Source: Diadema setosum
Lineage: Eukaryota > Echinodermata > Echinoidea > Diadematoida > Diadematidae
DNA length: 64,000 nt
Direction: 5' to 3'
Assembly (NCBI RefSeq): GCF_964275005.1
Contig: NC_092688.1
Coordinates: forward strand, 20,306,403 to 20,370,402
The notes under the pieces were generated by a model. That model was not told the DNA's origin. It ran no database searches and saw nothing but the letters and a program-made list of their open reading frames with translations. A program made the position numbers and the translations under genes. Shown here in pieces: positions 29,367 through 63,600 of this stretch (position 1 is the first letter of the stretch; each line of letters starts with the position of its first letter).

Positions 29367-29440
29367 TATTGAAATGCACGTTATTTGGCTACATAGTCTT
29401 ACTTTAATTTACCTTTTGATCATTATGAACCCTTTATATG

Positions 29441-29484
<44 letters not shown>

Positions 29485-30211: not shown

Positions 30212-30261
<50 letters not shown>

Positions 30262-30595: not shown

Positions 30596-30599
30596 GAAA

Positions 30600-32504: not shown

Positions 32505-32830
32505 TTAAGCGGCGTGATGCAGATAAAGTTTAAGAAGAAAAAAAATCTCTACTACGCTATGTGTAAAAGGAAAACAAGATAACACCTTGAAATAAATTTG
32601 CACAATGTCATGTGCGCACTCGATTGTCGTACGTGATTTTGTTCCACTGGCTTTTGATATTACCGAAGTTATCAGAGTTGAGACGTTATGGTAGATGTTA
32701 GTCAGGTATATAATCTATAACGTTGTGGGTAATATGAAAGTGAGTGAGCATCAATAAGGCGGGTGTAATGTGGATTTGAATAAAAATTTTTTTTAATGCA
32801 ATTTACACAAAGGTTACCATAACGTTTAAA
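32505..32830. other. Intergenic sequence, no feature
   Basis: AT-rich. Nothing recognised. Confidence 0.5.
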
Positions 32831-36145: not shown

Positions 36146-36430
36146 GATTAAATTCAATTCTACTTTATTACCATCCAACAAAAGGTACATGGGATTACAT
36201 GATACAAAGTGAGTACACATAACAATTCATATTGTTTAACAATATTTTTAAGAAGCACAATTTATAAAGTACTATACAAGATATTAATATGGTTATAGTT
36301 AAAGTTAGTTATATACAACTCTAATGAGAGAAACAATGCATACTTAGCAATACCATATACATGCAAGATTTATCTACAGTAGTAAATGGTAAGATTATTT
36401 GATAACTATACAAATGAAATAAAAGCCTAT
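36146..36430 (-). repeat. LINE-like 3' end, minus strand
   Basis: TTAAATTCAATTCTACTTTATTACCATCCAACA-type sequence resembles the minus-strand 3' ends at 29650 and 57745 (TTCAAATTTATT...TTCCATC). Similarity is weak beyond the first 40 bp. Confidence 0.4.
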
Positions 36431-36623
36431 GGCAAATAAATTGTAAACACACTGCAAACGTGTTTTTATGATCCACGCGTATATTCCCAAGTCTTTAGAA
36501 GTGTTTACAAGATGAAAGGATGTAAAGGTAGCAATTATGTTCATGGTTGTGTAAAGCATACATGATTATATACCGCATACTTAATGATTGTCATATCTTC
36601 TTTCAAAATATTTAAACTGTTAA

Positions 36624-37405
36624 CCCTAATCAGGCTGGGCTTTTTTGGCTATGCTATATCTGGGGGGGGGGGGGGGCGGATTCCGCCCCCCCCCTTCAGA
36701 TCTCGCCTATGGAATGCGCGATTGCGCCGAAAATCGGCACACGCGACGCCCGCGACGTATTCTATCAAAATGTATGGTTGCTTTCTCCGAAAAATTGTTC
36801 TTGTATTTTATATTTATTAATTATTGTAATTTATGCATAAAATCAGTTTTGGGCTCTAAATCACTTATTCATGCTCCAATTAAGCTAATTTCTTTTTAAA
36901 AAATGTTTCTTGTATCATTCTTCTGAGACATAGGATAAAAAAAAATCTGTATCGAAATTAATTTCTTATGTATTTTATTGTTTTTTGAATTTCTTATGTA
37001 TTTCTCTGTTTTTTGACGTTTTGTTTTTGTTTGTTTTTTGGCCAAAATTTGTCACAGACATTTTTCGAAGCATTATTATGCTAAAATAAATTAATTTAAG
37101 CCATTCTAAGTGAAGATATGAATTTTTATGTGAATTAATTGAAAAAACACAATTTGCATTGGATTTGTACACAAAATCACGTTTTGGAGCACTTTTGGGG
37201 TTGACAAATTTTTTTCGAACGGGCGTCGCGTCAAAACGGTACACGCGGGCGCAACAATTTTGGTCTCAAAAGTTGCGCGATACTTGAAAGAAAAAAGTCA
37301 TGAAACATCGCGGTGGGAGCTTATCGCGTTGCGAAGATATTGCGCGAAACGTCGGGGGGGGGGGGGGGCGGATTCCGCCCCCCCCCCCCCCCAGCCTGAT
37401 TAGGG
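36624..37405. mobile_element. 782-bp piggyBac-type non-autonomous element with GC hairpins at both ends
   Basis: The element is flanked by TTAA on both sides (36620-36623 and 37406-37409). It begins CCCTAATCAGGCTGGG and ends with the inverted CAGCCTGATTAGGG. CCC ends plus TTAA targets are the hallmark of piggyBac transposons. Near each end is a long G run, then CGGATTCCG, then a long C run, able to form a strong hairpin. The 700-bp interior has no transposase, so it is non-autonomous. It is intergenic. Confidence 0.88.
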
Positions 37406-37409
37406 TTAA

Positions 37410-37653
37410 TGCAACATATATCATGCAGATATAAGTATCCAGGCAGTGACGTACCAGATCAAATACATATATATACATATACATACATATAATTATAATG
37501 ATGTTTGTAGTCCGCGTGTTGGTACCAGTACAGAAAAGATGACGAAGTAGGGTAGTAATGCATTTCAGTCCAACAGTGCTATTTATTCAGACCAAATTTT
37601 CGACGCATACATACGTCTCCCTCAGGGTCGACATGAACAATTATATATCTATA

Positions 37654-37691
<38 letters not shown>

Positions 37692-40341: not shown

Positions 40342-40509
40342 CCTCTTGGTGAACTTGTCCTCGCACGCTAGCCTGATTCGTTCCGCTACGGCTGGTGAGT
40401 CGAGCCGGAAATTTCCCGTCAGCCCTTCCTCTGCTCTGGCTGCCTTGATGGCGTCTTTGATGGCGAAAAACACCGTGGATCCCAGGAAGAGAGGCGGCTC
40501 CCCAATGGC
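40342..40509 (-). CDS. XDH/AOX exon 24 (last identified): catalytic glutamate exon
   Basis: The acceptor CTCACCCAAG precedes [17 protein letters not shown], whose Glu is the catalytic base (Glu1261 equivalent). The exon then reads [21 protein letters not shown] strong donor AGG|GTGAGT follows at 40342/40341. Without splicing, the frame runs on to a stop at 40213-40215 with unrelated residues, so a further short exon is expected but was not found. Confidence 0.9.
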
Positions 40510-43500
40510 CTTGGGTGAGATTTTCAATCGTAACATCAAACGATATTTTGAAATATGTCTGTATCATTTTAATCCAAACAATAGGTCACAGGGCCGCCGG
40601 AGTTCAGGTACTTAATTTAGCTTGATTGTTTATCTGTGTTCCTTTGATTTTAAGAAGCACCAATATCAAGAACATCTTTTTTTTTTTTTTTTTTTTGGTG
40701 ATGTCTAATGTTTGGAAGAAATTTAATTTGTATTCGGTTTGTATAACATCACAATAACATGATTGTGTGTTCATTTTGTATTTCCAGAAAAGACGCGTTA
40801 GTTCAATCAATTGCCACTTCTCTCTTTTTTACGATGTCAATTTTGTACAAATTCAGATTTTATTGACTAATGAGGTATTGTCTTACGCTACATTCTCTAT
40901 ATTGAAGGCGTAGGTAAAAAGTTTAGTGTTCCTACGTGATAATTTTTGATTTATCCAATGATTCTTGTAATCGAATGATTGTCAGGCTATTTTCAGTTCT
41001 CGTCTCATTCTCTACTTACCTCTTTCACGTATGCACGTGTCAAGATAGTGATGCAATAAAGAAGTAAAGGAAGCGTGCACATAACATAATATTCCGCCAT
41101 GTTTTCAATAATTATTGAGAGAGAACACATTTAAAAAAAAATTCTTTCAGAATATTATGGTAAAATCGCCAAATTCCAGAGTTACAGCCTTTTCTGTGGT
41201 ACATTGAATTAATACAAGACTTGCAAAATTACAGCCAAAACAAAGCACGTAACTGCAATGAAAACAGCAAATCAGTGTTCAGGATTTTCGCTTATTACCA
41301 AGTTTATGTGCAAACAATGTCAGCAATGCTACAGTAAGTTTGCAAGCCATGCCCTGAGGGCACCCTTACAGTTTCCACATGATAATGCCATGTAGAGATT
41401 GAAACATGCAGGCATCAGTCTACTATTCATGCTAAATGCATATCACATTCTCTTTCCATTAGGTCATTTGACAATGTTTGATGCGAAATCGTGCCGTCGC
41501 AGATTTCCTATAATGGCTTTTGGAATTAACGATTCCACACCCTGGATTGTCAGAGACGAATTGTAAGAAATTCGCTTGAATGACCAGTTTCATTTCAATT
41601 CGACGCTTGTTCGAAATGCAGATCTGGGGGGCACTTCATGAAGCATTGTTTGCTGTCAGCCAATCAGATGCAAGGATTTCAGTAACTTCATTAAATGCCC
41701 CTGAATATTCGGCAAGTTTCAAATTATGAATGTACATTAGAACTGAGAGACCGGTTGAACTCAAGAGTGTAGGAGTTATAAGTTCGACGTCATATGCTTA
41801 CTTTGGAGGAGCAAATATTTGCCGGATTCGGCACGCCCTTGAGGAGTGTCACGTTGAACTCGGCAGGAATACTCCCAAAACCCGGAATCTTGTAATAACC
41901 AGGTCCAGTGGTCAGCAGCTTCCCCTGTGGCGTCCAGCGGAGATCCTCCAGTACGAAGAGACCGTAACCTTGCATAAAGCCACCTTCAATCTGAGAAAAT
42001 ATACCAAAATAATTTCTGGCAGCAACATACAGGCCTGAACAAGGCATGAAGGCATGCTTAGGAGAATATTCATACCAATATAAATTCTCGAATTAATTCT
42101 TGAAGTGAAAGCTGAATGAGAACAAATGCGAAACACATGAATAGATTCATCAATTTACAAAGACAGGGGAAATAACAAACAAAATTTATATTTCATTACC
42201 TGACCGATGTCGACGGCAGGGTTGATGCTCTGTCCAACGTCGAAAACGATGTCGGTCTTCAGCACGCGATGGTCTCCTGTCAGGCAGTCGATCTCGACTT
42301 CCGACACGCCGGCACCGTAGCAGACGTAGAGCCACTTCTTTCCTTTCTGTGTCGACAGGTCGTATGAAACCTCGGGGGTCCTGGTAAAGGAAAGTAATGA
42401 GCCTCTGAATCCATTTATATTGCCCCGTTTCTTATATTCAGTTAAGACTCATAAAACATTATCACTTCAATTATCGTCCACACAATAATGGTATAAGAAG
42501 AAGACAGAGCCAAACAAAGATAAGACCAATTAAAGCAGAAAGGGTTGCCATACATAGCGAATAATATAGTCATCAAAAACTTCATTCCACAATTAGCGGG
42601 GAGGTAGGAGAGTCACTCTCCACCACCTCTCTGGTCAAAGTGACTAAGATGAAAGTGGTATACACATCAGAATGGCCTGATTATATCCTGAATGTCCTAC
42701 AAAAAAAAAAAAAAAAAAAAAAAAACGAATCGAGGATCAGGTCTCCTAAATTTCCCCTTGAAAACGGAAACCAGACAAATACTATAATGATCATCATGAT
42801 GACCATTGTGTTCAAAATAAAGCAATGAAGCGCCATCCAAAGATAAACAAGATAATCAATACGTCAGTCAAGAGTCATCAATAATCAATAATCAATACAA
42901 TGACTAGATAAGGAACTTTAGACAAGGAAAATTGCGAAGAAATCTTTTAAGGCTTCCGTGGCGGTAGAACGTTGGGTGGTAGAAGGCCTACTGATACACC
43001 ACGTATTCTTTCTTGGGTATTTATGTGGCACTAAAAAGGGCCTACCCAGTTCCGACGTTTCGACAAGCATGTCCTCTTGGAAACGGCAGGAACATGCTGC
43101 AATGGAATGAAATTAATGTCTAATATCTATCATAGTCTATGCTTACTGCTGTAACAGTATACGGTTGCATGTTTATAACGTTCAGATCAACATGGTTCCA
43201 CTCACTTGTAATAGCCAGTCGAAGAAAGACTGACTCTGTTAGTGTAAGCCTCAGCAACCTTTAATGACAAACAAAAGACTTGTAGCAATCATGGCAATTG
43301 AGGATTATATAGACAATACAGCCTTTGCGTTCTTATCTCTAAAGTGATTTGCTTAACTATCAAGTCTTGAAGAATTTTCTTCTACTATCATTGTCCTCTT
43401 GTCATCAATATATTTCCACCTTTTGATTTCTTTGCATTTTTTTTTTATACTGGAGACCGCTTCGATGCTTGAGTGATGGTCACTAAATCTGTACAAAGAA

Positions 43501-46500
43501 CAAACTTACATCAACATTTACGAGAGAAAACATGACTGTTATAATATCTTCCAATAACAAATTTAGCAAGCGATCTAGAGTGTATTGACAAATTTGCCAT
43601 GGGAACATAAACAAAAATCATATTTGAACACTTAAGAGCTCAAATGAACATGGATTCCACAAAACACCATCGATGAAAAGCAATTACATTATAGTCATCA
43701 ACAGCACCGCTCCAGATTGACAGAGATACATATTGACCATTCTCCAGGTCTTGGGATTTGATGGACTAAATGTTTTAGACATTGCTCAAAGCTGTGGCCC
43801 AGAGGATCGTTTCGTTTTGCATGCAATAACAAAGAACAGACATATACAATGTGAGAAATGGGTATTAATATATTTCAACAGTAACACCAGAATTATACTT
43901 CAAGTGAGTTTAAACTGAACATATGGAAACATTTTGCTTGTATGCTCATAGAATATTCGCGAGATTATAGTCAAACCCAGACTAAGACTCGTATAATACG
44001 CTCACCCATTCGTCCCATGTTCCTTTTGGGTTAGAATACATGAAAGGTTCCAACCTCTGTCGAAGAATCTGACAGGCATTCTGAAAAAATAGCGAAATAA
44101 AGATCTGAAATTAACTGCCCGATCATTATTGTACCGTCTTCAGACGATGTAGGCACACACATTCTTAATATAAAATCAAATTATATCACACGATACTACT
44201 CTATGGACTGTCCGATCGTTTTAACACGATCGTGACGATAGGTATTTCATCCAAGTTAGGCAGTTTGTTAGGAGAGGAATGTTTAACTAAGTGCCAATAA
44301 GACAACTTGACACCTCATCACACGTTACTATGTCCCGCGAAAACATTTCAGACACGTTGAATGGGTCAAATGATGATCATTCTTTTCATTTTGATAAAGC
44401 GCATCAACATATTTCGAAATATATATCACGCTGTGTGAGAATGATAATGATGAGATAAAGGGTATCAACCAGGGATGGGATTTTCGTCAGATGTAAGAAA
44501 GTTGTCCCGCTCTCTTCGTACTTCCTCCACTTTTCAGTTTCACTTGCGACATCATCATAAAGTTCTATGTCAAAACACTGCAACCTGCAAAGTGTATATC
44601 ACCGCACATGTGTCAGTTATTCCGATTGGGCTTGTGTGTATCAGCAGTTTCCCTTTATTTGGTCGTTTGTCAGCTTGAATATTTATATATCTATGTTTGT
44701 TAGAGTTCGCATTTCTATATAGATTTATATGCTATTACATGATTATCCATGTCTTGGGGCAATTACCCCCCCCCCCCCCAGGGTTCATGGTTACAGAGTT
44801 TGGGTTAGGGTTAGGATTAGGTTCACGATTAGGATTAGGGTTAGGACCAGGGGGTAATTGCCCTAGAACCGATTATCAACACTCACCTGTACGGCGCCAC
44901 CATTGAGATCGGAGCCCAAGCTGCCCGCGGTCGCTAGGGTATTGGGTGTGGTCCCTGTACTGGTCTCCGACAGGTGGATCCGGTTCTCGGGAACGCCCAG
45001 AGTTCTGGCAGCAACCTGGACCATCTTGGTGTGCAGGCCCTGTCCCATCTCCACCCCACCATGGGTCACCAACACTGACCCGTCCGTGTAGATATGCACC
45101 AGGGCTGCTCCCTTCAAACAAAATGTGGGTCATTGTAGTGTACAGTATACTTCATAAATTATTCAGCGCCGGTAGATTTTATATTTTCTGTGATTCTACT
45201 ACTACACAGTTTGAATCTGTTATGATGGCTGTAGAACAGGCTTATGATTTTTTATCATTACATAAATTATTATCATTTCCTTTGGCAGTTGACTTAAACA
45301 TATGGATAGATGAAATGATGAATCTGCGTGCAGATAGAAAAACAAAGACACAATAAAGACACAACAAAGATATGACCAGACAAATCAATCACCAAATCAG
45401 TTTTTTTTTTTTTCAGGCAATCCTTGTTCAATCTGTGGATCAACTGCTGATAAAGTTGAAGAAAAACGAAGTTGTTTTAACGAAGTGGTTTTCTTTTTTC
45501 TTTTTTCTTTTTTTGTGTTAGATTGTTTTTTACTACAGATCTTTTTTTTTTTAAATTTAATTCTATGTTTCCACGAAATCAATGTTTTCATGATTATCCT
45601 ACTAGGCGGTATAATGAGTTTCATCTACTCCTTTTCAGAACCTTATTAGCTCAGAATACATTTACATGTATATACACCGGCCCAAAATATTGGAATTCAT
45701 TAAGTTCTGAAATGAAAAATTCGCCATCGTTATATTCTTTTAAGCATAAACTGAAATCTTTTTTTGTTAAATTCTGGCTGAGATATTTATGTTCATTACC
45801 TATATAGATTACAGCAAACGTAATGTTCATCATCAGTTATTGAATTCATCTTTTCACAATGAAAAACGGCATTACAAAGTAATGAAATTCGGCATTTTAT
45901 ATCCTCAACTTTTCCACAGCTGCGTGCAGTCACCAGCTGTCCGAAATACTTCCACAATCCTCTTTTCCGTTTCTCTGTCCAGCGTGTAGGCACTGTCTCT
46001 ATCTCTTTCTTTCTTTCCCTTCTTCCCTTAAATTTGTTTTTTTGCTCTATTCCTTTCACTCGTATCCCCCTCAGTTTTGTCATGTCATGTGGTTGTGTCT
46101 CTCTTGTTTGTTTCATTTTGTCTTATTTTCTGTATTATGTATTATGTACATGTACTTGTAATTATAATAAGTATTTTTGAATATATTTTAGAGTGGTCCA
46201 CAATCTACAAGCAATGCTTTTTAGTGGACCTCTCAGTTCTCTTTTTTTTATCCTTCAAACATAACTTTGTCATTCCAGTATGTGTGCATATCTTTGTAAG
46301 TTTGTTGATTACCATTGATTGTCATGCTTTGTAATGTATATATGCTTATGATTGAATTTGTGATTTACTTTGTGTTATGTCTTGTTGAAAAAAAAAATGA
46401 AAATGAAAATGAGAATGAAATAAATAAATGAATGAATGAATCTTCATCTTTAATGTTCGAGACTTGTTCATGTCTTGTAAAATACAGATTTTACATATTA

Positions 46501-48583
46501 TTTGCTCTTAAAAGAGACCACAGTACAAGCCAAACGTTACACAATGACGCTTTCATCTGCGTTCTTCAGCTCGGAACATTCATTTCTATCGAGATATAGG
46601 CCTACATTCACTCACATCATTTCATAATTTGAAAATAAACTATACCCTAAAACGTAAAATACCGTAGACGAACAATAACCTAGGTCTTCAAAAACAGAGC
46701 ACAATATCCTACTCGTACCTGATTCATGTGTAGTAGGGGGAATCCCACACCAAACTTTACTGGGATGATTGCTAATCCTCGCTTCTTCCATCGGTTTTCT
46801 CTGTGTTTATTGAGAAGAAGAGGAGACACACTCGATGGTAATATCAACACAGTGTGAGAAACCGAAGTGCTTTGTCACGGCAGTTAATATTCAGTCGTTT
46901 ATGCAGTGACAAACGATCGGAAATATTTTTTGCAAAGATAAACAAGCAAGTCCTTGCTGATCGTCAAGGAGCAATGTGAGCATAATTATATTGCACGTGA
47001 AATGACCGAATGAAATTCGTCACTTCTACTCCATATTATTGTATTTCATATAGCCCTACCGAAAATGATATAAAATGATTATGACAAAAGCAGTTCACTA
47101 CTGTAAAATAAGATTAATGGTGATAAAGTAGTCAGAATAGCATGAAACATCATCAATACTTCATAATTTATGATAGTATCAGTGACGATAAAACACCAAC
47201 GCAAATTAAGGCATATCACATGAATGCCTCAACTTTAATCGTCAGTATCATCGATTACATACTCAAAATTCAATTCAATTCAATTCAAAATGATTTTATT
47301 TCCACATAAAGTAATACAAAGTAATATACATAACGCTTACATGAGTACATAACATCAAAAGGAACTTTGAATCACTTTGAAAATGATAATTTAGATGATA
47401 AACAAGACCACTGCATAAATCTCACCTGTTGAATAAATCCACATTAGCTCTCCGTATGTAAAAGTCGCTGTTCTCAAGACACTGCTCCCAACACTGTCTG
47501 ACGGTGCACTTCTCGATTTTCTGGTTCGCTGGCGTCATGTCGCCATCTTGGTAGAAGTTCAACTCGCGCACCTGGAACGATTTGAATGCCAAGACGTAAT
47601 CACAGTTTAGTCTATACGTTGACCCTTTCTTCAAGAGCATCATAGGGCAATTAAAATCATAATAATCTTTCTCTCTATCTGCTTCTCTTATAGCACTTCA
47701 CCAACTACACTGCACATGCTGAAAACATTGGTAAACGAGAGAATAACAGTGGAAATATTAGCCGCGGTTATCAAACAGGCAAGATTATACACTGTTCGAT
47801 GTGCATTATAACCTTTGCTATGAATAGTTTTTCATTTGGTGTAACGATGAATACATATTTGCCAGGGATTGCGAAACGTTTTTATCATGTTTGAGCATAT
47901 CATATGCGTGGGTGGGTGGGCAGGGGGAGGCTGTCAGAGAAAATAAAAGGGAACCTAAAGGTTGGGTCAAATGGGGAATGGTCACGTGGGGGGGGGGGGG
48001 GGTGCAGAGAGTCCGCCAATGGGAGGGGGCCAGAGAGTTCCGCCCGGAAATAGTCATCATTTTCGTTGGAGTGGGGGAAGGTTGTCTTTTTGTTTTCCTA
48101 TTGCTTTTTCTTAACCAAAGAGACGAAAGTGTGTATATGGGTGTGCGTGGGATGGCGGTTGGGGTGTAGTCCCCTGGTGGGTATGGGTGTGGGTGTGGGT
48201 GGGAAATCCCCCCGTGGGACAAACCTTTTCCTGCGAGATTCCGCACGTGTACGCCACATGGGTTATCATGGACTCCGTTATCAGCATGGCCTGCGGACCA
48301 CCGACGCCCCGGAAGGCTGTGCTCGAAACGAGGTTGGTGCGACAGACATGCCCCTCCACGCGAACCACGGGCATCAAGTAGCAATTGTCGAACAAGTGCA
48401 TCGCCATGTGACAAACCTGACATAAAAGAAATTTCGGTTCAGAAGGATTGCAAATATTCAGGGTAGTTTAACGCTAGAAATTGTATTATTTTGCAACAAA
48501 TCACAAATTGATCACTGGGATAACCAAAATTTTAAAGACTTCGTCACAGCAACATCCAATAGCGTAAACATTTTCATGCAGTC

Positions 48584-48624
<41 letters not shown>

Positions 48625-51600
48625 AACTTACTTTAACCTGAAAATGTTATGGTAGGTCAATTGTGTGAAAGCAGAAACTGATTAGCATTACACATGGAGT
48701 ACATAGATATCTGGGGACAGATCAAATTTTTGCAGCCACGTATCTTTATGAGCCTGTGCGTTTCCTTTGCGGAAATATTACGGAGCTTTAGATTTCAGTG
48801 CAGCGCGGACCTTTGAGACGACGCTTGAGCTGGACGGTTCTCCTCTTCTCTGCGACGTGCGGAAAAGTAGCTTTATTATGGATTACGCTGGGGGTATAAA
48901 AAACATAAATGATGGGTGCATGAAGTAGCTCTCTACGTCGTGAATTGAGCGGAAGTAAAAATAGTCCAGAACGCGTAGTGAAAAACTTAGACGACGCGAG
49001 CTAAAAATAGATCGACTTGATGCGCGCTTTTGCGCATGCTCAGAATTGTTTTTTTTCCCTCTGAACATCCACGTCGCGAAAATCTAAAGCTTCCAAAGAG
49101 ATTTTAAAATCTCTTTGAAAGCTCCCTCGTGTGAGCGTTCCCAGCTCTCATGACCAGAAAACCTTGTGTATGTGTGCGTGTATGGGGGCGTGTGTGTGTG
49201 TGTGTGCGTGCGCGCGCGTGTGTTTGTGTGTGTATGTGTTCATAAAAATAAAACTTTGTCCGTTGCGTCCTGGAATATCCTGATATCCTCTCAATCTGTG
49301 CTACCGTGACTATTTCTTTTATTTACGTGATTACACTCGCTTACACAATTTACGAAAATGGAGTGACTGTGAGCAGGGAGGTGGCCCACCTGCATGCTGT
49401 GAGTGCGTAGTTGTTGTATATTATGCACATTGATTGGAACCTCCAAATTTCACGTCATGTTCAGCTCTGCGAGAGTATAAAAGGAAAAGGTAAACTAGAG
49501 ATTGTAATTTGTCATTACTGACAAATTAAGGTGATCAGGGGGGCGTTTCATCAACGAGTTCGTCGGAGGTTTTCACCGACAAATTTGCTATCAGCCAATC
49601 AGACGCAAGGATTTACACTGACAACTGTTAAAAGCTAATGAAATCCTTGCGTCTGATTGGCTGATAGCAAATTTGTCGGTGAAAACTCCGACGAACTCGT
49701 TGATGAAACGCCCCCCTGGTTTTTTTTAATCAATGATTCGACTGCTGATCGCAATAGGCATGACCATACAGGTTTCATCTGTGTTTAGAGACATTGGCCG
49801 TGTGATGTTTGGATTCTCATTTAGAAAAGGGAGTCATATCTGCCATCTTTGGTACCAAATTCTGTACACACTAAATAACGAAGATACAGCAACAAATATA
49901 TATGACCTTTGACCCACCTTTACACTCCCAAGATGGCATCTGAGGAAAAAGTGGTTATTTTGTGAAATGATTCTTGCGACATCGTTTATACGTGTGCAAA
50001 ATATGGGAAAGATACAACAGGTATTCGACAAGATACACGATGAAACATTTATGACCTTTGACCCTAATTTACATACCCAAGGTGTTGTCCGATCAAGTAG
50101 TTGTTATTTTATGAAATAATGTACCTGACATAAACTAAACATGGGCTAAGTATGGGGGTGATAGGGGCTGTTTTTCTTGATTTATTGCAAAGAAAGTTGC
50201 AGAAAGAAAGAAATATCTCAATACATCGAAGATAAGCTTTAATTTCAACCAAGTTTTTCGATGTGATTTCGACATTGTATGAAATAAGAAAGGGCATTTG
50301 ACGATAGTGCAAAGTCTCAGCTACAACATATTAAAATCTGGGAGAAATTCACCGAAGGGTAAGTGAGCTAGTGCTCGATAAATACAGTCATGTCAATTTT
50401 CACATCTAGAAAAATTCCCTCCCATAGAGATAACACGTCATAACGAAGATAAAGAAAGAAGTACATATGACCTTTGGCATAGTTGCACTGTCTATCGCCA
50501 TTGACGCGCGCGCGGAATTTCAACTTTGACGGGCCCGTATGACGTCATATTGAGTCGGATTGACTTGAAACTTGGTAGAAATATTCCTTGACATTTCAGA
50601 CATCCGATCAAAGTGAAAAAAACGGGACATTTCTATTGCATATGAGCTGTGCGTGCGTATATGCGCGCGCGCGTACGCGTCCGTCCGATTTTTTCAATTT
50701 TTCAAAAAATGCTCGAAATGGTCTGAAACGTGTGCAAAAAATTTTTGAGCTCGCTTGGAGCATACAAATATTTTAACGCGCGCGTACGCGCACGTTTTAA
50801 GGTATAGATGCATTTTGAGAATATGAATAGAATGCGCTTGACTTGAAATATATGTGACGTAAATTTCATTGAAAAATTCCATTTCATTAATGAGATATGA
50901 TTGAGAATGTGTTTTCATATAATGACGTCATAGTGACGTCACGGTCGACTGATCACTATGATTTTACTAGATCTGTCGTCTTTGGGACACGATACATACA
51001 TGGCATAAGTTTGAACTTGATAGGCATAGCACTTTCTGAGCTAACCTCTGCACAACTTTTGGAGAGAAATAAAGAAAGAAGAAAGAAGAAGCAGAAGAAG
51101 AAAGAATCCGTACAGATAAAGAAGGTGATCCGAGATGATACTCGGATCACCTAATAATGGCAGACAAGAATGTACCACTGGGGACATGTCGACGCTAAAG
51201 CCTGCATTCAGGTAGAGTTGAAGGTTGACAGCCTGCAGCTTGCCATCCCCGGTGAAGCCAGCCCGATAACGACCGAGGAAAGGATGCCTAGTTCCCGTAG
51301 TCTGAATGTCGTCTTCTCGCTCCAGCATGAATCGAACTGGTCGCTGCAGTCTGGATAGTCAAACAAATGACGAATAAAGTAACCGTCGGATTGGATGATA
51401 ATAGTCTTTACTCAATCAGTAGGCATATTAGGTCATAAGGAGACTTTAGAATTCAATGCCGTTTATTGTCAATTTGAGTAAAAATTAGAAAAAAAGGCAC
51501 TATGTTTTCCAAGTTGAATGGCGAGAGTTATGACTGAAAGCAAACACTGGACATACTATTTGGCTAAAAGCAGTAAAGTTGAATCTAATATAGTTTTTCC

Positions 51601-54600
51601 TCCATGGCTTTCCTTACTTGAATGTAGGGCGCTTCTATATATCTCTTTCTACAACAAATGTTTTGACTGTACTTTTTAGGATCAGTCAATGATGACAGTG
51701 GCGGCATTACCTTACTGTACGTTCCAAGATTATGTTTCCACTACCCGATATCGACATTGTAATAATCACTGTAATTGGAAGTATAAGTTCTATCATCATC
51801 ATGATCACTGCATTATTTATGATGGAATGATAGCTATGATGATACAAAAAACGAGATATCGATGTATGTAGTCATTGTAGGCATCAGTGCTATCATGATG
51901 ATGATGATTATACATTATCAACGATAGAATACAGCTATCGTCTTCTCTGCTACAGGGCCGGCGCACAGGGGAGGGGGCACTTTTTTTTTTGTAAAATATA
52001 TAGGACTGCACAGGGTCTAACCCCCCTTTCTTTTTTCCTGGGAAGTGGCACCAGAGAAATATGGTTAATTTTTTGCTTTCAAGCCAACTAACCCCGGAAG
52101 TTGTACCATAAAAATTCCGCTGTAGGTCTGTCTTTGTTTTTGTTTTTGTCTTTGTCTTTGCTAAATGCGGGTGAGGCCTTTTTTTTTCTGCTTGTTAGGT
52201 GATGAAACCCGGAAGTGGCACCAGAATGAATATAAACTGGGTGCCGCCAAACCACTTTCACAAACACGGAGCTGGACCTGTCCCATACTTGTTAGCTGCC
52301 ACGGCACAGGCTGACGCGGCGATAGACGCCTTGATTTCTTTGCCCCCGAAGCCGCCTCCTAGTCGCTTCACTCGACAAGTGATGCGATTTCTCGGCACGT
52401 CCAGAACACCAGCCACCATTTTCTGAAGAGACAACGTAAATCATAATGACGTCAAAACCCAGGGCTTGTCACATTCTGCCACTATACGTTCACGTCATGC
52501 TCTTTTTCTTTTTTACATTTGTTGATTAGACATCTTCTACTGTCATGACTGCGAAAACGTCAGGTACGTTGTTTTTTTTGTTTTTTTTTTTTTTTCGAAC
52601 CTGACCCATAACCATGTACATATTGACTGGTGTTTGTATGTTCCAGATCAAATACAGTATGTAGATGAGTGACACAGTTTACCGGTCTGTGCCACATTCA
52701 TTATACTTAGTCATACTTTCAAAGCAGCCTACTTGAACTAAACATTTGAGCTTAAATGATAACGCGTACCTTGTAACTTTGTCTCAAAAAAGGATTGGCT
52801 GCTTGAATAAGCTTCAGTTGCTATCATGAAATTCTGTGCCAGCTCTCAATAGATACGCAAAAAGACCTTCTGTGCTGTTCTCGAGTGTGTTTATGGTTTG
52901 TTTGTTTTGTTTTGTATTTTTCCAGGGAGAAATATTATCAGGCTGTCACCTGTACAAGATGTTAACACACAGATTACCTTAAAACTTGGGTGAATTTAGG
53001 AATGTTGCATTTTATCAAGTAGTTACCCTGCTGGAAAGAACACAGTGTCTCACGGTGTGCTCACAATGTGTTCACACAGTCGACTGTGTGTAAACGCTCG
53101 AATCTAACAGTGTGAAGATGTTTTCACACTGTGGTGTGGTTTTTCACAGAGAGTTAACACAGTATAATGTCCTGTTTTACTTTTACCCTGTGAATTTATG
53201 ATTTACAATGTGTTCACATAATCAAAACGCTCGAAGAGATTTCACACTGTGTTCTATGTTATGCTTCACACTGTGCGACACTGTGTTCTTTCCAGCAGGG
53301 TATGGCCATTTACCTGCACTGCGGTGGGATCTTGGGCTGCCGCGAAGACCTCCAGCTCGCTATCCTCCCCTTTAGGGACGACGAGGGCACACTGTGTCTC
53401 CAGATAGAAATGCTCTTGACCACCGATGCTGAGTTCACCCTCGATCACGTGATCGCAGGTGCTGAGGATCTCATCAGGATCGCCCCGCTGGAGGACGGCT
53501 GCATCGCCGAAGAAGGACTGCTTCTCTATGGCTTCCTGAAACATGAAGTAATGATGGAATCGTGTGATGTACGGTGGACTCTCGTTATAACGAAGTCCTC
53601 GGGACCGGCAGTTTTCTTTCGTTATATCGAAATGTCGTTATAACCGAACAAATAAACAATAATGAAAACAAAACAAAACAAAGAGCGGATAGTGTTGTGG
53701 CCTGAATTTTTACTTTGTTGTTACCGGAATTTCGTCGTAACCGTGTTCGTTATAACGGGAGTGCACTGTAGTATGATTGTTTGGAAATGAAAATAAAAAA
53801 AATAGAGAGAAATGAATGAATGAATGGATGTTGTGTACAATGTTAATTTTCTGTCTTAAATCTTGTTTCTTTATCTCCCAAAGATTTTGTAGAAGGAGAG
53901 TTGGACTTGAGCAAGAATTTAGAAATGAGTCGGGGGGGGGGGGGGGACTTCAGAAAGAAAGAAAACAAGCAAGAAACGTGTGTTTAAGAGGCTATCAAAA
54001 GCATAGCGAGTAGTGATATCATAATGTCACGTGTATAGAAAGCATAAATAGATAATCATCAAACCGAAACAAACAAATAAGAATAAAACTAACAAATGGG
54101 GCAAAATCACACTAAATTCGTCTATTTCATGTGCTTGAAATAAGTAATGGATTCTTCAAGAGGACATGTTAACTCTTTTTATGCCGAATTCTGAAATTCC
54201 CATAGAGTTAATATACAGGCCGCCAGGTTCCCGTAGGGAATGGGTTTACTGTTTACCTGAATTGTGATGATGGATTCGAGGTCTTCGTACTCCACATTGA
54301 CAAGTGTAGCGGCTCTTTGTGCAAGAACCTGAGTCTCAGCGAGAACAACTCCAATCCGCTGTCCAACGTGAAAAACCTAGCAGTCGTTCCAAGATAGATT
54401 GCATTAAATGTAACCGTCTCTTTTATTTTTCAGAGCGAATTCAACAATCATTAGCCCAGGCAAACCAAGATACTTTGAAATTGGACAAAGATATTGTCGA
54501 AGGGTACACGTGGCTAAAGATTGTCTGCAAAAAGCACATAAACTTTGCGACTGATGAGAAAGATTTCCCATAGAAGCAGTCAGAAGAGTACAGACATTCT

Positions 54601-57600
54601 AAAATTAAAACCTCAAAATTGATGGTATGCATTATTAATCATCACGAAACAAGACTCTCAATGCACTGATGCAATTTGCATCTGATAGAGCATTTTCACC
54701 TCTTCAGTGGCAAACAGCTCCTCATCAGCTACTATCGGCCCGCCCACTTTCTTGATACCCGGAATGTCATTGGCTGACACAAAATCAAGGACGCCATCTA
54801 GCGCCAAGGCCGGCGAAGCATCTACAGAGCTGTTGAAACGACAAACCCATGAGAACGAGAATACATTATCTCCTGTATACTTCCATGCGCAGGAAACCAT
54901 CAAGACACGAACACTACAAGCAAAATCCCGAATGCGATAAAGACGTATACCTAGTACCTTGCACAATGCGTGCCTCAGCGTGATATCGTCATTTGATATC
55001 AGTTGGCGTCGCGGTACTGTCACGCGCATTTAAACTCAAAATTATCATAATTGATAATCTATCCCTGAAATCCCCAATCAGTATAAAGTGGGTATGACAC
55101 CCAAAGATTATCACATTGAATGTTATAAATTCACATTCAAACGCGCACAAAGAGAGAATCAACAGTATGCCTCATATTCCTCAAAAACTCTAAATTGTTG
55201 TCATGACAATGAATTGAGTAGTAAACAACGCTAGCTTCCATTAGCGTGTTATCTTTATTCTCAGCAATAAGATTGATACAAAAAGCGCAACAATACCTAT
55301 TGAGTTATTTGTTTTTAGTTTGTACAGACACTTAAGAAGGCGTTTGAACTTTTGACGATGACTAAATCTTAGAGATAGTTCAGACTGGCCTACCCTTGGT
55401 TTTTAAAGTCCCTTTACCCGTCGTATTTACCCCTTCGAAAATGAAGAGTACCTTTCCAAAGACGATATAGCATCAGTGGAGTTTATGTATTTAGATTAAA
55501 ATCACTGTGTTACATTGAAAATGCTCCAAACTGCAGTCGAGAGCATGTCGGTGAGGGTAGGTGGCCATTATGTTGGAAAGCACCAAACGAAGATTATGAA
55601 AGAGGGCAAATAACAGGAACAAATCAAGGAATACTTTTTTTCATAAATGATTTTCTGTAAATAAAGTAGCTTTAGCTTTATGCTCCTCCCCGTAATTTGT
55701 ATATCGTCTTTATCAGAATAAAAGAACCTATAGGTACTTACATTATTTTCGCATGGGCTCGCTGACTCAAGACAAAGGACATGTAGAGTTCCCCTAAAAA
55801 GGGTAAGAGAGTAAAAGAAAATATCGTTATCGAGAATGTTATAAGTGAGTTGCAGGTTGAGAACTTCAGAAAGACCAGTGTCGACAATAGGACTTCCGGT
55901 ACAGTACGGCAAATACACATGCCTTGGTTTGGGCCACAATGTTCATTGGCTACAGGCGTCATACCACCGTATTCAACCTGACTTCAGTAGCCTTGCAGCT
56001 GGTTGATATCAATTTAAGCATCAGTCTTTCTGTCATTGCAATTTCAGCAGATGTATCCATGATACTTTCGTAAAGATAATGGAATTCAATAACGTAAGAG
56101 CACTTGAATTTCAGACGAAATTTCCTTGTTTATTGATGGAGTCAGTCGCATTGTTTAGCCTACCGACCACGCTTGGCATGTCGTCGACATAGACGGCTTC
56201 TCCCGTGGCGTGTTGGAGAGAGGCCTTGTGAGGTATGGGTCGGCCTACTGGGTCTCGGCTCGGTTGACCGGAAGGAACTCTCTAGGTGTGAGAATCATGG
56301 GACACAACACTGTCAAGACATTTCAGTCAACAGGCATGGTCAAAATCAACATTGAAATATTGGTACACTGCAAAAAGTCCGGTGTTAAATAGTGAACACC
56401 GAGCTGGTGTTAAATTTTCGGTGCTCATTTATGGTGTTAAATTAACACCCCCGGGTGTCATTTCCAAATTTTAAACTGTTTTTTGAAGAGTTTCTTAGTA
56501 ACTGCACTTCTTGTTGATTTTTAATTTAAACAAGACGATCAAGAATTTTACATTAAAATACTAGATTTTTGAAAAAATGTGAAAATAATTTTACACCAAA
56601 GTAACACCAGCTGGTGTGGTCCCTTATTGAAGCTGGACGGGTGTTAAACCATTGATATTAACACCAACAAGTATCAAATCAACACCATGTGGTGTCATTT
56701 TTTAATTAACACCAGTACAGTGTCAAAATAACACCAGGTACAGTGTCAAATTAACACCACGAAGTGTCAGGTGAACACTTTTCAACACCATCACAGTGCA
56801 TTTTTAACACCTGTGGGTGTGGTCCTTTATTGAAGTTTGATCGGTGTTAGATTTAACACCCGTGGTGTTAAATCTAACACCCACGTTTTTACAGTGTAGA
56901 GATGGTCGATCGGGACTTTCAAGGCTTTAAGACATACTTTCTTAGATGCTTTCGGTATCATGCAAGGTTATGTGATCATGAAATCGTGCACGAAAAAAAA
57001 AAAGGACGATGAAGAATAAAGGAATTCAATGCCTGATAGTGTGTGAATGTGTTTGTATGTGTGTATGTGTGTGTTTGTGCGAATATGTATGACGTGAGTA
57101 GGATTATTTTCACTTAAAAAGGTGTGGGCATATGAAATTCAGGTAGTCCAATGAGCAGAAGGCATGGACATTTGAAACAGTGTTTGCAAGTTGTTTACTT
57201 TGTGTGCGGAATGTAGGCTCATAAAGTTTTTGCCCGAGGCGGCATTTACAAAATCTGGGCAATGCGCACTTTACAACATCATGTAGCAAAATCGTGTATA
57301 GCTACGAAATGTTGTATATAATTTATACTGACAATAGCATACTCTTCGGTGGTGCAGTGGATAAGACTCTTGATTTTGAAAAGGATGTCTCTAATTCGAA
57401 TCCTGCCAAGCGCTTCATCCTTCAAATTGGGACAGAAGTTTTTATCCTCCCTCCCTCTCGACTCAGATTTAAACATATCTTACTTGCAATGCTGACATTG
57501 ATAAAAGTGGCAGAGCCCTGAAAGCAGGAACAGTGCTACCATTGGTAATTAAGGTCGTGTTATTACAATAATATAAAATATACCTCATACACTTGGGCAC

Positions 57601-60600
57601 CGCGGACAGGCAGAAGTTGATACAAGGAAGCGGCACTCTTTTCGCGAGATGACACAGAAACGTTGAGGTCAGGCTGTTGTGACAAAAAAAGTAATGAAGA
57701 CAACCATTAAAAATTAGGTGTATTAGTATTAGCAAAGCGGTACTATCAAAGTTCAAAGTTCAAATTTATTTTAATTTCCATCAAATAAACAGTGAGAATT
57801 ATATACAATGTATAAGAAGAGCATACTGCAAAAACGTAAATCAACCCCCCAAAAATGTGGTAATGAGTAACAAAATGAAGAAAACATAATTGTATTTTTT
57901 GAAGATACATTGAATTATACATACAAATATATTATATTCATATCACGCAATAATCAAATGACAAAGCAATCCGATGTCCCTACTGAGCGATAGCGGCTGT
58001 TCACTGTCATTTCAATCGGGCCCACCTGACGCATGCTAAGCTGGTCCAAGACCATGAGGTAAAACTTGAAGAAAAAGCTCAGAGTCAGGGACTTTCTGTA
58101 CGTCTCCATTCCCCCTGGGGCGCCCGCTGGGAGAGGTAGATCTCTCTCTAGGCCTGACAGAGCGCTCTCTAGCGTGCTACTGTCCCATGATCTGAAAAAA
58201 AAAATGAATACCTATATGACGACCTGACATTTGCTCGGGTCTTATTTTCTCCTAGGACCTGGGAGAGTGTTAGGGTTGTGATTAGGGTTTTTTGGTCTAC
58301 TTTGATGTGAGGCATCGGAGCAATCGTCGCAAGAGCAAAATGTCATAGAACCATACATATGACAAGAAGAATGTATCAGCTGGAACATTAAGAATTTTAC
58401 AGGACTTTATCTAACACACTTTATTCTGTTAAACTTCACTTACGTCAAAAAATGTGACAATAAAGTCTCACTTATACGATTTCTGTTCTTAAATGTGTAC
58501 AAGAGGGCTCAAATATAAAAACCTGAAATATAAGAATAAGTGGTCACTTGTTCGTTTGCTTCGCCCTATTTCGACATGGTTTGACCATAACAATGTGTGG
58601 AAGCATCGGTCATAGACCAAGAGGAATGAATGTCTATACGAGGAATTAACTCACTTTCCTTTCAAGCTAGCCATAGTCTGGAGAGCCATCACTGTGGTAG
58701 CGGCCATTCCACCGAACGCCAAGGTGACGTCTTCGATGACTGGGGTGTCAGCCTCCACTCCGAAGAGAACCCTCATCCCGGCATTGACCACTGCGATGTC
58801 GTCCTCTCGACGAGGCGACTGCTTGAAGGCGAAGACGTACTCGTTCTGAGAATGGAAGAAAGGAAGGAAGGAAGGAAGGAAAGAAGGAAGGGGCACTTCA
58901 CTCGTTAGATCCTAAAGTATGATCAATTTTGCAGTCACACCACCTGCGAGAACATAAGATTTAATGTTCAATATTCACATCAAAATTAACATCATTTGAA
59001 AACACCTCTGACCATGTGACGCAGCAGAAGGCACAAGAAGCTGGCAATATTGTCTGGATGGGAAAATATTACACTTGTACTACCCATATCTTCAACACTT
59101 TCATATCAATGTTAGATGACCAAACTCCCAAATGATGTGGCAGAAATACCCACATTCTAATTATCTACATTTCTGAAAATTTTCTCGGATCTAATTTGTG
59201 AATCCCCCTCCTAAACTGACAGGAAACCACAATCATATTTCGAGCATAGGGCATAGACCAAGTTAGTAAAGGCTTTATAATGCAGCAGGATTTTGTGGAA
59301 ATAAAGTTGTTGTTGTGTGTGTGCGTTTTAAGTGACCTGAGACCAAGTCACACCTGGCGAGTGAAGGGGATGGTAATGCTCCGGAGAATCTCGTCCGGCA
59401 TCAAGATGTTCTTGCGGTAGCCCGTGAAGAAATCCTCGTCCATCGTCACAAATCGAGAACCTGTCAGAAGAAGTAAAATATCGTATTTATTCCTTTCTTG
59501 ATAAGTCCCTGACATGAACGGAGCTAACAACTCATGGACGTGACCTGTCCGGACGACGGACAATCACCCTGTATAGAGCCGTTGATAGTTCCTTGTGCAA
59601 TTCTTCAGGTTAGCAGTTTGGCTGGATAACTCAACAATCCTCACATTTTCATGTTTCAACACAGAACGTTTACAGCCATATCATTTCGTCATTCTGGCAG
59701 TCTTACATCACACACTATACACATATTGCAGGTGCTATACTCTTCAAACCAGCGATTGGGAGAATTATTCCTTAAAACTCGTCCGACTAAATGTCTGACA
59801 TATTCTCGCTCAGTTATTTGTTTCTTTGTATTGTTTAGTCTGCGCAGTCGTGGGAGCGCGTGTTTCATTTGGTTGCTTAAAAAATCCATTGATTCAATTT
59901 AGCTTGACATGTAACATCATCCTTTATATTATTCCATGTGGGGGTCCCTGGGATTGGGCCCTTTTAAACACACAGATAAGACTTGTACTTCCCAACAACA
60001 ACAACCAAAAAAAATGCATGATGTAATTCATCATAAAACATAAACACAATAAACTTAATAAACTTGTTATTTCGTAGAATGTTTCCCTCAGTATATAAAA
60101 TTGCAAACAATATTTATTATACAGTATCTCGCTTACCTTTATACTTGACAAGAGTGGCGCAGACACGTGTGAGCGTGACTATTGGCTCATAAATTTATGT
60201 TTTCAATGTTTTGCAAAGCAAGTAATACATAATTTACATGAATGAAGCACGCAACAGAACTTTTTCATTCATCACGTGTCTTTCTGGCTTCTCTCCCGAT
60301 ACATGTCACATCTTTCTTACATCTTTCTTACGTCACATGATCTTTCTCACCGTTGGACTGTGATACCAGCTCCACAGTGCACTTTGCAGCCATGAAGATT
60401 GGATTGAGGTCGGACACTGGACTCCCAGTCACAATATTCCCACCGACAGCCTTTCACACAGTAAAACATTTGGATAGAGAACGTGACAACCTTTGAAATG
60501 CTGACAACACTATATTTTGGAGCAATTTAAAAAAGTGGCGTCTTCAAGAGCTATAGCAAGTATCAGGCACGTGCATAGGTAAAAGAGCTGACTTAACATT

Positions 60601-63600
60601 GACCTATCCCTTTTGGCATATTGGGATATAAAACTGTAGCAGGTTTGGGTCCAATTCTGAACTGTTTTCCTCCTCGAAAACACGTCATTGTCTAGAAGGA
60701 ATAATCAAAGGGCAATTTAATCTAAAATTAACCATAGCACCTAAATCTACAAAACATGACTATCATGAAATGACATCATCATAAGCAACAGCAGCAGCAA
60801 CATAAAACAAATAACCCCCTCCCCCCCCCCAAAAAAAAACACCAAACAAAACAAAAACCGGTTGGCCCCACTAACAAAACGTAATGATATAGTATTCATG
60901 TCGAAATCAGCTGCAACATATGACATCTGACAGCATTTAGCGTCTTTATCACTAATATTCAAGGACAAATTATTTTAATGACATTAAGTATTCACGGGTA
61001 AAATATCCTCTGTAGAAATAAAATGTCAATATAATGACTGCGAGATGAAACTCAAACTCACCGCCATGTTTCTGATCTGGGCACCAGCAAACCATCGGAG
61101 CATTTCCACGATAGCTGAGAAAACCCGGGTTTTGTGTTCTACGCAAAGAACTTTACTTTCAAATTGCTGAAGTAACAAATATTTAGGGTATCGGGACCAG
61201 GATTTCAAGAGGGCGTTATTGAAGGACGCATTAGGCATCTGCTATATCCCAAACGTCCGAAGAAACTCGTTTTGTACGCTGAATATTCGAAATTGATCAC
61301 AATAACCTCAATATCAGTTCTTCTCTTGATTCGGCCGTTGTTTCTGTCTGGTTTGAACAGCGTATAGCACATTTGCAATCTTTACAACAGAATGTTCACG
61401 CAATACGCGCCTGCGACCCATATTTGATTCATGATTAACTAGATTCACATTGTCTTATTTTCGTACTGATGATGTTAGACATTATCACGCCATCCAACAG
61501 CGCATATTGAATTCCGGGTCCGTCTGTCCGTGGGTCTTTAAAGAACAAGTCTACCTTCATATACATGTGGACTGAGTGAATGCAACGATATTAGCAGAAA
61601 ACATCAGTGAAAGTTTGGGAAAAATCGGACAATCCGTTCAAAAGTTATACATTTTTAAAGTATCTGCGCAGTCACTGCTGTATGAGAAGACTACATAGTG
61701 TATGATGTTATATGCGTACAACGATATAAAGAAAATAAAAAAAGAGAATTTCACAAAACTTCACTTTTTGAATAAAGTGCACATTTCTTCGACTTGTTAC
61801 TGACATATGTTAAGGGTAATATTCATCCCCCTGCCTTCTGAAAGAGAGAAGTCAAGTGTTCTTTTGTTATGCGAGAAAAGTGAAAATATGTTGAATTTTC
61901 TTCATTCTTTTTTTATATCGTTGCACACAGTCATGTGACATCACAAGCTATAGTAGTCTTCTCATCCAGCCTTGAGTGAGCAGAAACTTCAAAAATTCAT
62001 AACTTTTGAACGGATTGTCCGATTTTCCTCAAACTCTCACTGATGTGTTCTACTAATATTGCTGCATTCACCCAACCCTCATATCTATGAAGGTGAACTT
62101 GTCCTTTAACGCCTGATCAGCTGATAGGCAAACTGCGGGCAAGGCAATTCACGTCGCCACAAAATACCTGTCTGTATAACTACTCCTCTCAGGAACTACT
62201 ACTATCATCATTACTACACTATCGCTATTTGAACACCATTACCGTGCTTACTTTCTTAGGGCCTATTACAGTTTATGTACATTGTATTCTATATATTCAT
62301 ACCTTTTTCTGTCTCCTCTGTCTATAGTAGAACTACTAGTACCAGTTGTTTTTTATGCACTTGTAAAGCTGTTTAGTTTCTTCTGCCACTCTTTGTCAGC
62401 AGATGACGTGTAAGCTGTATTGAAGGCAAAGCGAGTTTATGTTGCGATGCAATCATACATTTGATTTCACACTGATCCTATCCTTAGACTCCCGATGCGA
62501 TTATATAAAGAAACGTACAAGTAGAACAAGGGCAAGAAAGTGTAGGTGAAGGAGACCTTTGCCTATGAGGAATTCACCCCCAAATTTATTGCAAGAACTA
62601 CAAGCTGCAAGTGTTTCAGAAAAATGGTGTCTGAACTATGGTGTCTGTTCAGACACCTCTTCTCTTGATACGTGTGATATGATGGTCTGAATCACGATAT
62701 TTCATTTCCTGTTTTTCAAAATACTTTGTTTGAAACATTATGATGTATCAAGTGAATATATTATGTTTGATGTAGAATAATAAATATCCCAGTGGGAAAA
62801 AAATTGCACCCTACAAACAAAACAAAACAAAAAACAAAACAAGACAAATCAAAACAAAAACAAATCAAAAAACAAAACAAAACGAAACAAAATCCCATTT
62901 TCAGGTGCGAGTTTCTTCACTTTGTCTCCCTCTACAAATTAAATTTGTTAATTTACAGATCAGCAGTTGCGATCTTAACAAGTTTAATTTGTAGAGGGAG
63001 ACAAAGTGAAGAAACTCGCACCTGAACCTTCACCCCTCTGAAAAATATCTTTCTTTCAAAAAATCCCATTTTGTTTGTAGGGAGAATGACTATATCGCAT
63101 AAAGAACCTGGAAGGTCTGAGGTGAGGGTCTTGAGGAATTGCTCCAGCCTAGAAAGGATGACCGACGACCCCACCACGATCCCGTCATCGGTGACCTCCA
63201 TAGCAGTCAGCTCCGGTACGTGGGTCACGCAGATTAGGACTGGGTACAGTTGATTGCCGAACCTCATCTCAATACCTGTCGAAGGAGATTTCAGTAGCAA
63301 CACATGTGCGTCTGCTGCCAGAAAACTGATAGATTCATGGGTAGATTGTTTTGTGCTCACGAATGTAAGATGTAATCGCTGTTATATATGCATACCATAA
63401 TAAATACGTATTGATATGAAATGAGTGAGAACCCCCCCCCCCAGGTTTCTCCATGATGGATGTAACAGATCTGTGTGCATTTTCTCTTCATCTCTTTTTC
63501 TGCAAATACGATGTAACTCCAATCCAGTAGTCTTAGTAATTCTGCTACGAACATGGCCTGTAAAAATCGTGAATATGCCCTAATCCAGTAGTATTCGTAG

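What the first reader, a model, noticed from the sequence alone, without database searches (positions are those of the whole stretch)
46719..52422. Active-site mosaic between xanthine dehydrogenase and aldehyde oxidase
In bovine XDH numbering the enzyme keeps Glu802 (GGKE), Phe1009, Gln767 and Glu1261. It has Met for Arg880, as in vertebrate aldehyde oxidase, and Val for Phe914 (FRGVGG). The residue counts between these positions match XDH exactly, so the assignments are firm. The FAD domain keeps the XDH loop RREDDIA. Such a protein may have lost purine binding while still using NAD, possibly an independently evolving aldehyde-oxidase-like paralogue.
Basis: partly seen in the sequence, partly recalled or inferred. 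Interest (0 to 1): 0.8.

Follow-up and report, generated by a model that had tools for sequence, protein, structure and literature searches.

The report
Urchin xanthine dehydrogenase paralogue, altered pocket
This is an intact sea-urchin copy of the purine-breakdown enzyme xanthine dehydrogenase whose substrate pocket has been rebuilt, so it probably oxidises something other than xanthine; it belongs to an urchin-only set of copies whose pockets differ from one another.

Summary
A minus-strand gene (25 exons in the window, 63799-39753; seven more upstream) encodes an unbroken 1339-residue XDH-type protein with Q767, E802, M880, V914, F1009, P1010, G1079 and E1261 in bovine numbering. The genome is Diadema setosum, which also holds a canonical XDH (E802/R880/F914/F1009). 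The window gene belongs to an echinoid-only sister clade of that XDH (bootstrap 100), apart from vertebrate aldehyde oxidase (AU p 0.0009). The clade members read all lack R880. Beyond that the branches differ: this gene lost F914, its Diadema sisters lost F1009, camarodont urchins have Gln802. Met880 is not a stable trait (Leu in D. antillarum). Pocket sites changed more than the rest; the catalytic Glu and the redox sites are largely kept; gene-wide dN/dS is 0.1-0.2. Sister copies show 6-7-fold pocket enrichment, but pocket dN/dS is about 1, so relaxation is not excluded. Best reading: a working, probably NAD-linked molybdenum hydroxylase that no longer favours xanthine; Arg-to-Met mutants of human and bacterial XDH lost purine activity and gained aldehyde activity. 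The substrate is unknown and no activity was tested.

The parts
39753..63799 (-). Gene as far as it lies in the window: 25 exons of the XDH paralogue (FAD domain to C-terminus). Seven further exons with the 2Fe-2S domains lie upstream, outside the window, up to window-scale position 71506.
   Evidence: one open frame, GT-AG junctions, 1339 residues in all, no stop.
58655..58845 (-). Exon with the FAD/NAD-side loop RREDDIA (58812-58792)
   Evidence: KREDD at bovine 422, 427-430 as in the XDH rows; RQENA/RQQNA in the vertebrate AOX rows that cover it.
53314..53535 (-). Exon with Gln767 (53334-53332)
52289..52422 (-). Exon with Glu802 of GGKE (52338-52336)
51176..51350 (-). Exon with positions 820-876; Met873, Pro875, Val876
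48225..48416 (-). Exon with Met880 (48407-48405) and Val914 of FRGVGG (48305-48303)
   Evidence: same residues in the C4:21.11 Mb copy
46719..46800 (-). Exon with Phe1009 (46742-46740) and Pro1010 (46739-46737)
44887..45111 (-). Exon with Gly1079 (44925-44923)
40342..40509 (-). Exon with the catalytic base Glu1261 of GEPPL (40500-40498)
39753..39800 (-). Last coding exon, FPEPEPATFQPFFVRP

Best explanation
The gene is a working paralogue of xanthine dehydrogenase, one branch of an echinoid-specific duplicate clade, in Diadema setosum. Shown by sequence: intact frame; the seven Pfam domains of XDH; the iron-sulphur cysteines, the XDH-type FAD/NAD loop, Gln767, Glu802 and Glu1261 kept; Arg880, His884, Phe914 and Thr1010 replaced; purifying selection on the gene as a whole; a separate canonical XDH in the same genome. 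Inferred: Glu1261 still deprotonates Mo-OH, the oxo group attacks an activated carbon of the substrate, and electrons pass through the 2Fe-2S centres to FAD and on to NAD+. Without Arg880, and with one wall of the Phe914/Phe1009 sandwich replaced by Val, xanthine should be a poor substrate, and aldehydes or other-shaped N-heterocycles should fit better. The physiological substrate is not known.
For: Intact 1339-residue frame; seven Pfam domains over cut-off. Residues. Canonical XDH in the same genome. Echinoid clade, sister to canonical urchin XDH. Gene-wide dN/dS 0.19 (window gene against the C4:21.11 Mb copy) and 0.10 (between the two Diadema branches, where dS is near saturation at about 1.65). 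Pocket sites changed more than others, FAD/NAD sites not. Human R881M and E803V mutants: purine activity down, significant AO activity (passages); R. capsulatus R310M: purine turnover drastically down, benzaldehyde kcat 33 to 211 per min (passages); A. nidulans changes at this Arg cannot use xanthine (passages).
Against: No activity, expression or structure was examined. Glu802 is kept, and in one A. nidulans Arg mutant hypoxanthine activity remained. R. capsulatus R310M had no detectable phthalazine activity, and putting Glu and Arg into mouse AOX1 did not create purine activity, so these residues alone do not set specificity. Pocket dN over gene-wide dS is about 1 in the sister copies, which relaxation would also give. 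Between the window gene and its D. antillarum orthologue the pocket shows no excess (2 of 30 against 62 of 1309). A related L. variegatus copy (P0008) has lost Asp429 of the FAD site.
Confidence: 0.62

Rival explanations
1. It still oxidises hypoxanthine, xanthine or pterins in the animal; other pocket changes compensate for the loss of Arg880 and Phe914.
For: Glu802, Phe1009 and Glu1261 are kept; an A. nidulans Arg mutant kept hypoxanthine activity; by family it is XDH-like.
Against: Arg880 was needed for xanthine in the human, R. capsulatus and A. nidulans enzymes; a canonical XDH is present to do that job.
Confidence: 0.18
2. The pocket has simply lost constraint: a weakly active or inactive enzyme kept for another role, or early decay.
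For: Pocket dN over gene-wide dS about 1 in three sister pairs; repeated turnover at 880, 1009 and 1010.
Against: Catalytic Glu1261 and Gln767 unchanged on the 22-row tree; gene-wide dN/dS 0.10-0.23; rest of the sister genes 0.21; no stops in the five clade copies modelled in this genome.
Confidence: 0.15
3. It is a true orthologue of vertebrate aldehyde oxidase.
For: Met880 as in some AOX, Pro1010 as P1015 of mouse AOX3.
Against: AU test p 0.0009 against one clade with AOX; Glu802 and the XDH FAD loop kept; below the TIGR02969 cut-off, 1476.7 against 1912.3.
Confidence: 0.01
4. The odd residues come from wrong splicing, assembly error or a pseudogene.
For: Residue 880 is the fourth of its exon, near a junction.
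Against: No stop in 1339 codons; the second genomic copy has the same M880 and V914; the D. antillarum protein has V914 and Leu880.
Confidence: 0.02

Closest known systems
Canonical animal xanthine dehydrogenase (bovine XDH; urchin P0007, P0009)
   Same: Domain order, iron-sulphur cysteines, FAD/NAD loop, Gln767, Glu802, Phe1009, Glu1261; direct sister by descent
   Different: Arg880 to Met, Phe914 to Val, Thr1010 to Pro, His884 to Leu, Ala1079 to Gly
Human XOR R881M and R. capsulatus XDH R310M (laboratory mutants)
   Same: The same Arg-to-Met change with the pocket Glu kept; works like these is the main inference
   Different: The natural gene has many more pocket changes, Val914 among them; its own activity is unmeasured
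Vertebrate aldehyde oxidase (AOX1, AOX3)
   Same: Arg880 replaced; Pro at 1010 as in mouse AOX3 P1015
   Different: Separate origin; Glu802 and the XDH FAD/NAD loop kept; Val at 914, where PMC3864932 says Phe is highly conserved in all vertebrate AOX and XOR
Aspergillus HxnS nicotinate hydroxylase
   Same: An XDH paralogue with a new substrate beside a kept XDH
   Different: HxnS keeps Arg880, Glu802 and both Phe and inserts an Ala after Phe1009; the urchin gene does none of the first and last

Membership tests
Xanthine dehydrogenase (XDH) | Seven-domain architecture of eukaryotic XDH | tested here: met
   all seven over their cut-offs
Xanthine dehydrogenase (XDH) | Eight iron-sulphur cysteines (identity of the eight recalled) | tested here: met
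   Cys 49, 54, 57, 78, 118, 121, 153, 155 of the model; their exons lie upstream of the window
Xanthine dehydrogenase (XDH) | XDH-type FAD/NAD loop | tested here: met
   RREDDIA; 22 of 26 FAD/NAD sites as in canonical urchin XDH
Xanthine dehydrogenase (XDH) | Glu802 and Glu1261 | tested here: met
Xanthine dehydrogenase (XDH) | Arg880 | tested here: not met
   Met880
Xanthine dehydrogenase (XDH) | Phe914/Phe1009 sandwich | tested here: not met
   Val914, Phe1009
Xanthine dehydrogenase (XDH) | Descent from within animal XDH | tested here: met
Xanthine dehydrogenase (XDH) | NCBIfam XDH subunit models (made for bacterial and archaeal annotation) | tested here: inconclusive
   xdhA 521 over 467, xdhB 808 under 849.5
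Xanthine dehydrogenase (XDH) | Oxidises hypoxanthine and xanthine with NAD+ | not testable with these tools
Vertebrate-type aldehyde oxidase (AOX) | Glu802 replaced | tested here: not met
   Glu kept; [quoted passage not shown]
Vertebrate-type aldehyde oxidase (AOX) | Arg880 replaced | tested here: met
Vertebrate-type aldehyde oxidase (AOX) | AOX-type FAD loop | tested here: not met
Vertebrate-type aldehyde oxidase (AOX) | Descent with vertebrate AOX | tested here: not met
   AU test; only fused ovine and tupaia AOX models stood for AOX
Vertebrate-type aldehyde oxidase (AOX) | TIGR02969 cut-off | tested here: not met
   1476.7 under 1912.3
HxnS-type nicotinate hydroxylase | Ala inserted between Phe1009 and Thr1010, with Arg880 kept | tested here: not met
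   GVGFPLL without insertion, Met880; feature

The most novel reading that the evidence does not exclude
Echinoids carry a rapidly diversifying family of NAD-linked molybdenum hydroxylases derived from XDH, in which each copy's pocket is tuned to a different non-purine substrate (for example dietary, defensive or pigment-pathway aldehydes or heterocycles), with selection acting on the pocket while the redox chain is held fixed. The window gene is a natural member that does without Phe914.
Probability: 0.33. Interest if true: 0.66.

Novelty: new variant of a known kind. Interest (0 to 1): 0.46.

Why it matters
In eukaryotes the AO gene is said to have evolved by duplication of XDH (passage of PMC10385300, citing Rodriguez-Trelles 2003, which I did not read). 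The urchin clade is a further case with the ancestral type still present and with intermediate states: Arg880 lost with Glu802 kept in Diadema, Glu802 changed as well in camarodont urchins. It offers natural counterparts of the classical XOR mutants, and a set of close relatives in which substrate choice could be mapped to single pocket residues. [quoted passage not shown] this gene and its Diadema sisters are exceptions.

Tried and rejected
Orthology with vertebrate AOX: tested by tree and AU test, rejected. Splice artefact and pseudogene: tested by two models, a second genomic copy and dN/dS, rejected. Positive selection on the pocket: pocket dN over gene-wide dS 0.99, 1.17 and 0.98 in the three sister pairs, bootstrap ranges 0.46-1.96 in all, so neither shown nor excluded. 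Pocket excess between the window gene and its D. antillarum orthologue: none (2 of 30 against 62 of 1309, p 0.42), and none between the window gene and the C4:21.11 Mb copy (0 of 30 against 12 of 1309). Of three camarodont pairs two show an excess (p 0.023, 0.0009) and one does not (p 0.44). Of 14 comparison proteins outside the clade, one starfish paralogue (P0032) passed p 0.05 and two (P0013, P0019) leaned the same way. Structure prediction was not run: the full-length orthologues exceed the 1200 residues stated for a single protein, and the spliced window protein is not contiguous DNA.

Whether the copy at C4:21.11 Mb is a true duplicate or the other haplotype left in the assembly was followed but not settled: the three pieces compared match window-scale coordinates 2556-8533, 28949-40038 and 68752-73598 colinearly at 94.5-98.8%. 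I therefore treat the two as possibly one gene. Paper searches for urchin or echinoderm XDH/AOX duplicates: no paper held all terms; searches listed nothing on the subject as far as titles and abstract starts show. That library lacks most subscription journals, so this is no proof that nothing is in print.
Full report
What is there. The window lies at C4:20306403-20370402 of a 912.7 Mb assembly of 102 contigs. The assembly is Diadema setosum: its contig C1 has 52,426,318 bases, the contig length listed for the D. setosum protein P0004, and a gene model read from C1 is almost identical to P0004 (end branches 0 and 0.0008). On the minus strand a 24-exon GT-AG model gives one open frame of 1101 residues. 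A splice-aware alignment against the D. antillarum orthologue reproduces these exons, adds the last exon (39800-39753) and seven exons upstream of the window, and gives 1339 residues without a stop. The seven Pfam domains of XDH all score over their cut-offs. By sequence it is closer to bovine XDH (1261 bits) than to mouse AOX3 (1126) or human AOX1 (1073).

The residues. It also has A771, M873, V876, L884, P1010, M1014, A1076 and G1079 where the two canonical urchin XDHs have E, L, A, H, T, L, P and A. In the 181 proteins listed by three searches (120 listed each, of 7834, 7087 and 7719 that passed), R880 is kept in 161, F914 in 179, R912 in 181; V914 occurs once, in P0001, the D. antillarum orthologue (1058 of 1101 residues identical); the other non-Phe914 is Tyr in a fused aldehyde oxidase model, P0012. 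F1009 is neither Phe nor Tyr in three, all Diadema (P0003, P0004, P0010). Of the 20 proteins without R880, seven are members of the urchin clade (P0010 counted with it by identity; it was left out of the trees), three are aldehyde oxidase models, and ten are other animal copies (five echinoderm copies from starfish and a crinoid, one sea cucumber, three amphioxus, one mussel). Loss of R880 by itself is therefore recurrent and not special to this gene.

The family in the same genome. PF20256 gave 27 exon matches at nine places, the window gene included. Copies read (802/880/914/1009/1010): canonical XDH at C1:23.66 Mb E/R/F/F/T (394 residues read); window gene E/M/V/F/P; C4:21.11 Mb copy E/M/V/F/P; C1:16.60, 16.65 and 16.89 Mb E/V/F/C/S, E/V/F/L/T and E/A/F/R/S. 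So the five D. setosum copies of the window gene's clade all lack R880 and each lacks exactly one sandwich Phe, F914 in one Diadema branch and F1009 in the other; the three camarodont members keep both Phe and have Gln802. Two more loci were read in part: C4:4.35 Mb has Ala802, Gln880, Phe914, Met1009, and C4:29.66 Mb has Asp802, Asn880, Phe914, Tyr1009, by eye from the aligned pieces; both stand outside the XDH rows in a 30-row tree, on long branches whose place is unsure. The single-exon match at C4:11.44 Mb was not read.

Descent. In trees of 60, 31 and 22 rows the window gene joins P0001, then the other Diadema copies, then the camarodont copies P0005, P0006 and P0008; this clade is sister to canonical urchin XDH (P0007, P0009). 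Support for the clade: 99 (SH-aLRT), 100/99, 100/100. Holding seven clade members together with two vertebrate AOX rows is rejected, p-AU 0.0009. L. variegatus and both Diadema species each have both kinds, so the duplication precedes their split. On the 22-row tree site 880 changed 6 times, 1010 6 times, 1009 3 times, 802, 914 and 1079 once each, 767 and 1261 never. Met at 880 is one of several replacements, not a link to vertebrate AOX.

Constraint. With the two canonical urchin XDHs as baseline, 14 of 28 pocket sites of the window gene differ against 220 of 842 other sites (odds ratio 2.8, p 0.007); the other six clade members give 2.1-3.3 (p 0.002-0.054). Of 14 comparison proteins 11 give 0.6-1.2 and three starfish paralogues 1.6-2.2. 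FAD/NAD sites show no excess in the clade (0.26-0.69). Among the three C1 copies the pocket differs at 10, 12 and 11 of 30 sites against 7-9% elsewhere (odds ratios 6.1-7.0, p 4e-5 to 6e-6); canonical L. variegatus and D. antillarum XDH differ at 2 of 30 against 20%. The list of 30 pocket sites is mine, from recalled structural knowledge, and was written after the first site table had been seen; no correction for multiple tests was made. Gene-wide dN/dS is 0.10 between the Diadema branches (dS near saturation), 0.19 between the window gene and its C4:21.11 copy, and 0.23 between two C1 copies. Pocket dN over gene-wide dS is 0.98-1.17 (bootstrap ranges 0.46-1.96) against 0.21 elsewhere, so relaxed constraint and diversifying selection are both open. 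Not every redox site in the clade is fixed: P0008 has Met at 429.

What it most likely does. The kept Glu1261, Gln767, Arg912, iron-sulphur cysteines and XDH-type loop imply a hydroxylase that can pass electrons to NAD+ (inferred). In print, human XOR E803V and R881M fall in purine hydroxylation and show significant AO activity (passages of PMC3509653, reporting Yamaguchi 2007, not read). R. capsulatus XDH R310M falls drastically with purines and its benzaldehyde kcat rises from 33 to 211 per min, though phthalazine activity was not detectable (passages of PMC2671166). A. nidulans HxA changes at this Arg cannot use xanthine (passage of PMC5746545), and an Arg-to-Glu change kept hypoxanthine activity (passage of PMC3624778). 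Against a simple two-residue switch, the reverse changes in mouse AOX1 gave no purine activity. [quoted passage not shown] Loss of one aromatic wall should weaken stacking of a flat purine and leave room for another shape (inference). No substrate is shown.

Compared with what is known. By descent and architecture it is of the XDH lineage, but it fails two residue tests of a canonical XDH (Arg880, Phe914). It should work more like an Arg880 mutant of XDH than like an aldehyde oxidase, because Glu802 and the NAD side are kept. AOX membership fails on descent, Glu802, FAD loop and TIGR02969. HxnS is the best parallel for a new-specificity paralogue beside a kept XDH, but used a different change.

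Verdict. In kind this is ordinary duplication and pocket change in the XDH family; unusual are Val914, the split loss of the two Phe and the number of close pocket variants in one genome.

Noticed in passing
L027, L028, L029 (G000:C4 4.338-4.354 Mb and 29.661-29.669 Mb): Two deep XDH/AOX-family genes of D. setosum, at most 49% identical to the rows compared and outside all XDH rows in a tree with long branches; they lack Glu802 and Arg880.
   Followed up: partly
window 2556-64000 and on to window-scale 73598; copy around C4:21.070-21.144 Mb: A segment of at least about 71 kb that holds the gene has a colinear copy about 760 kb away at 94.5-98.8% DNA identity in the three pieces compared: segmental duplicate or leftover haplotype.
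   Followed up: partly
window 5102-5563, 22153-22467, 28739-29008 (+): Exons of a nuclear hormone receptor: zf-C4 zinc finger and two parts of the ligand-binding domain.
   Followed up: no
window 26468-27562 (+): Open frame of 365 residues with a weak match to the reverse transcriptase family RVT_1 (24.7 bits, under the 29.6 cut-off), probably retroelement remains.
   Followed up: no
P0013, P0015, P0019, P0032 (starfish proteins): Starfish XDH paralogues with other pocket changes: Cys802/Lys880, Ile802 with Arg880 kept (two), Ala802/Lys880. They fall among starfish copies in the tree, so pocket remodelling recurs in echinoderms.
   Followed up: partly
P0020, P0028, P0029 (amphioxus), P0156 (sea cucumber), P0157 (mussel): XDH-like proteins outside the urchin clade in which residue 880 is Ser or Gln.
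   Followed up: no
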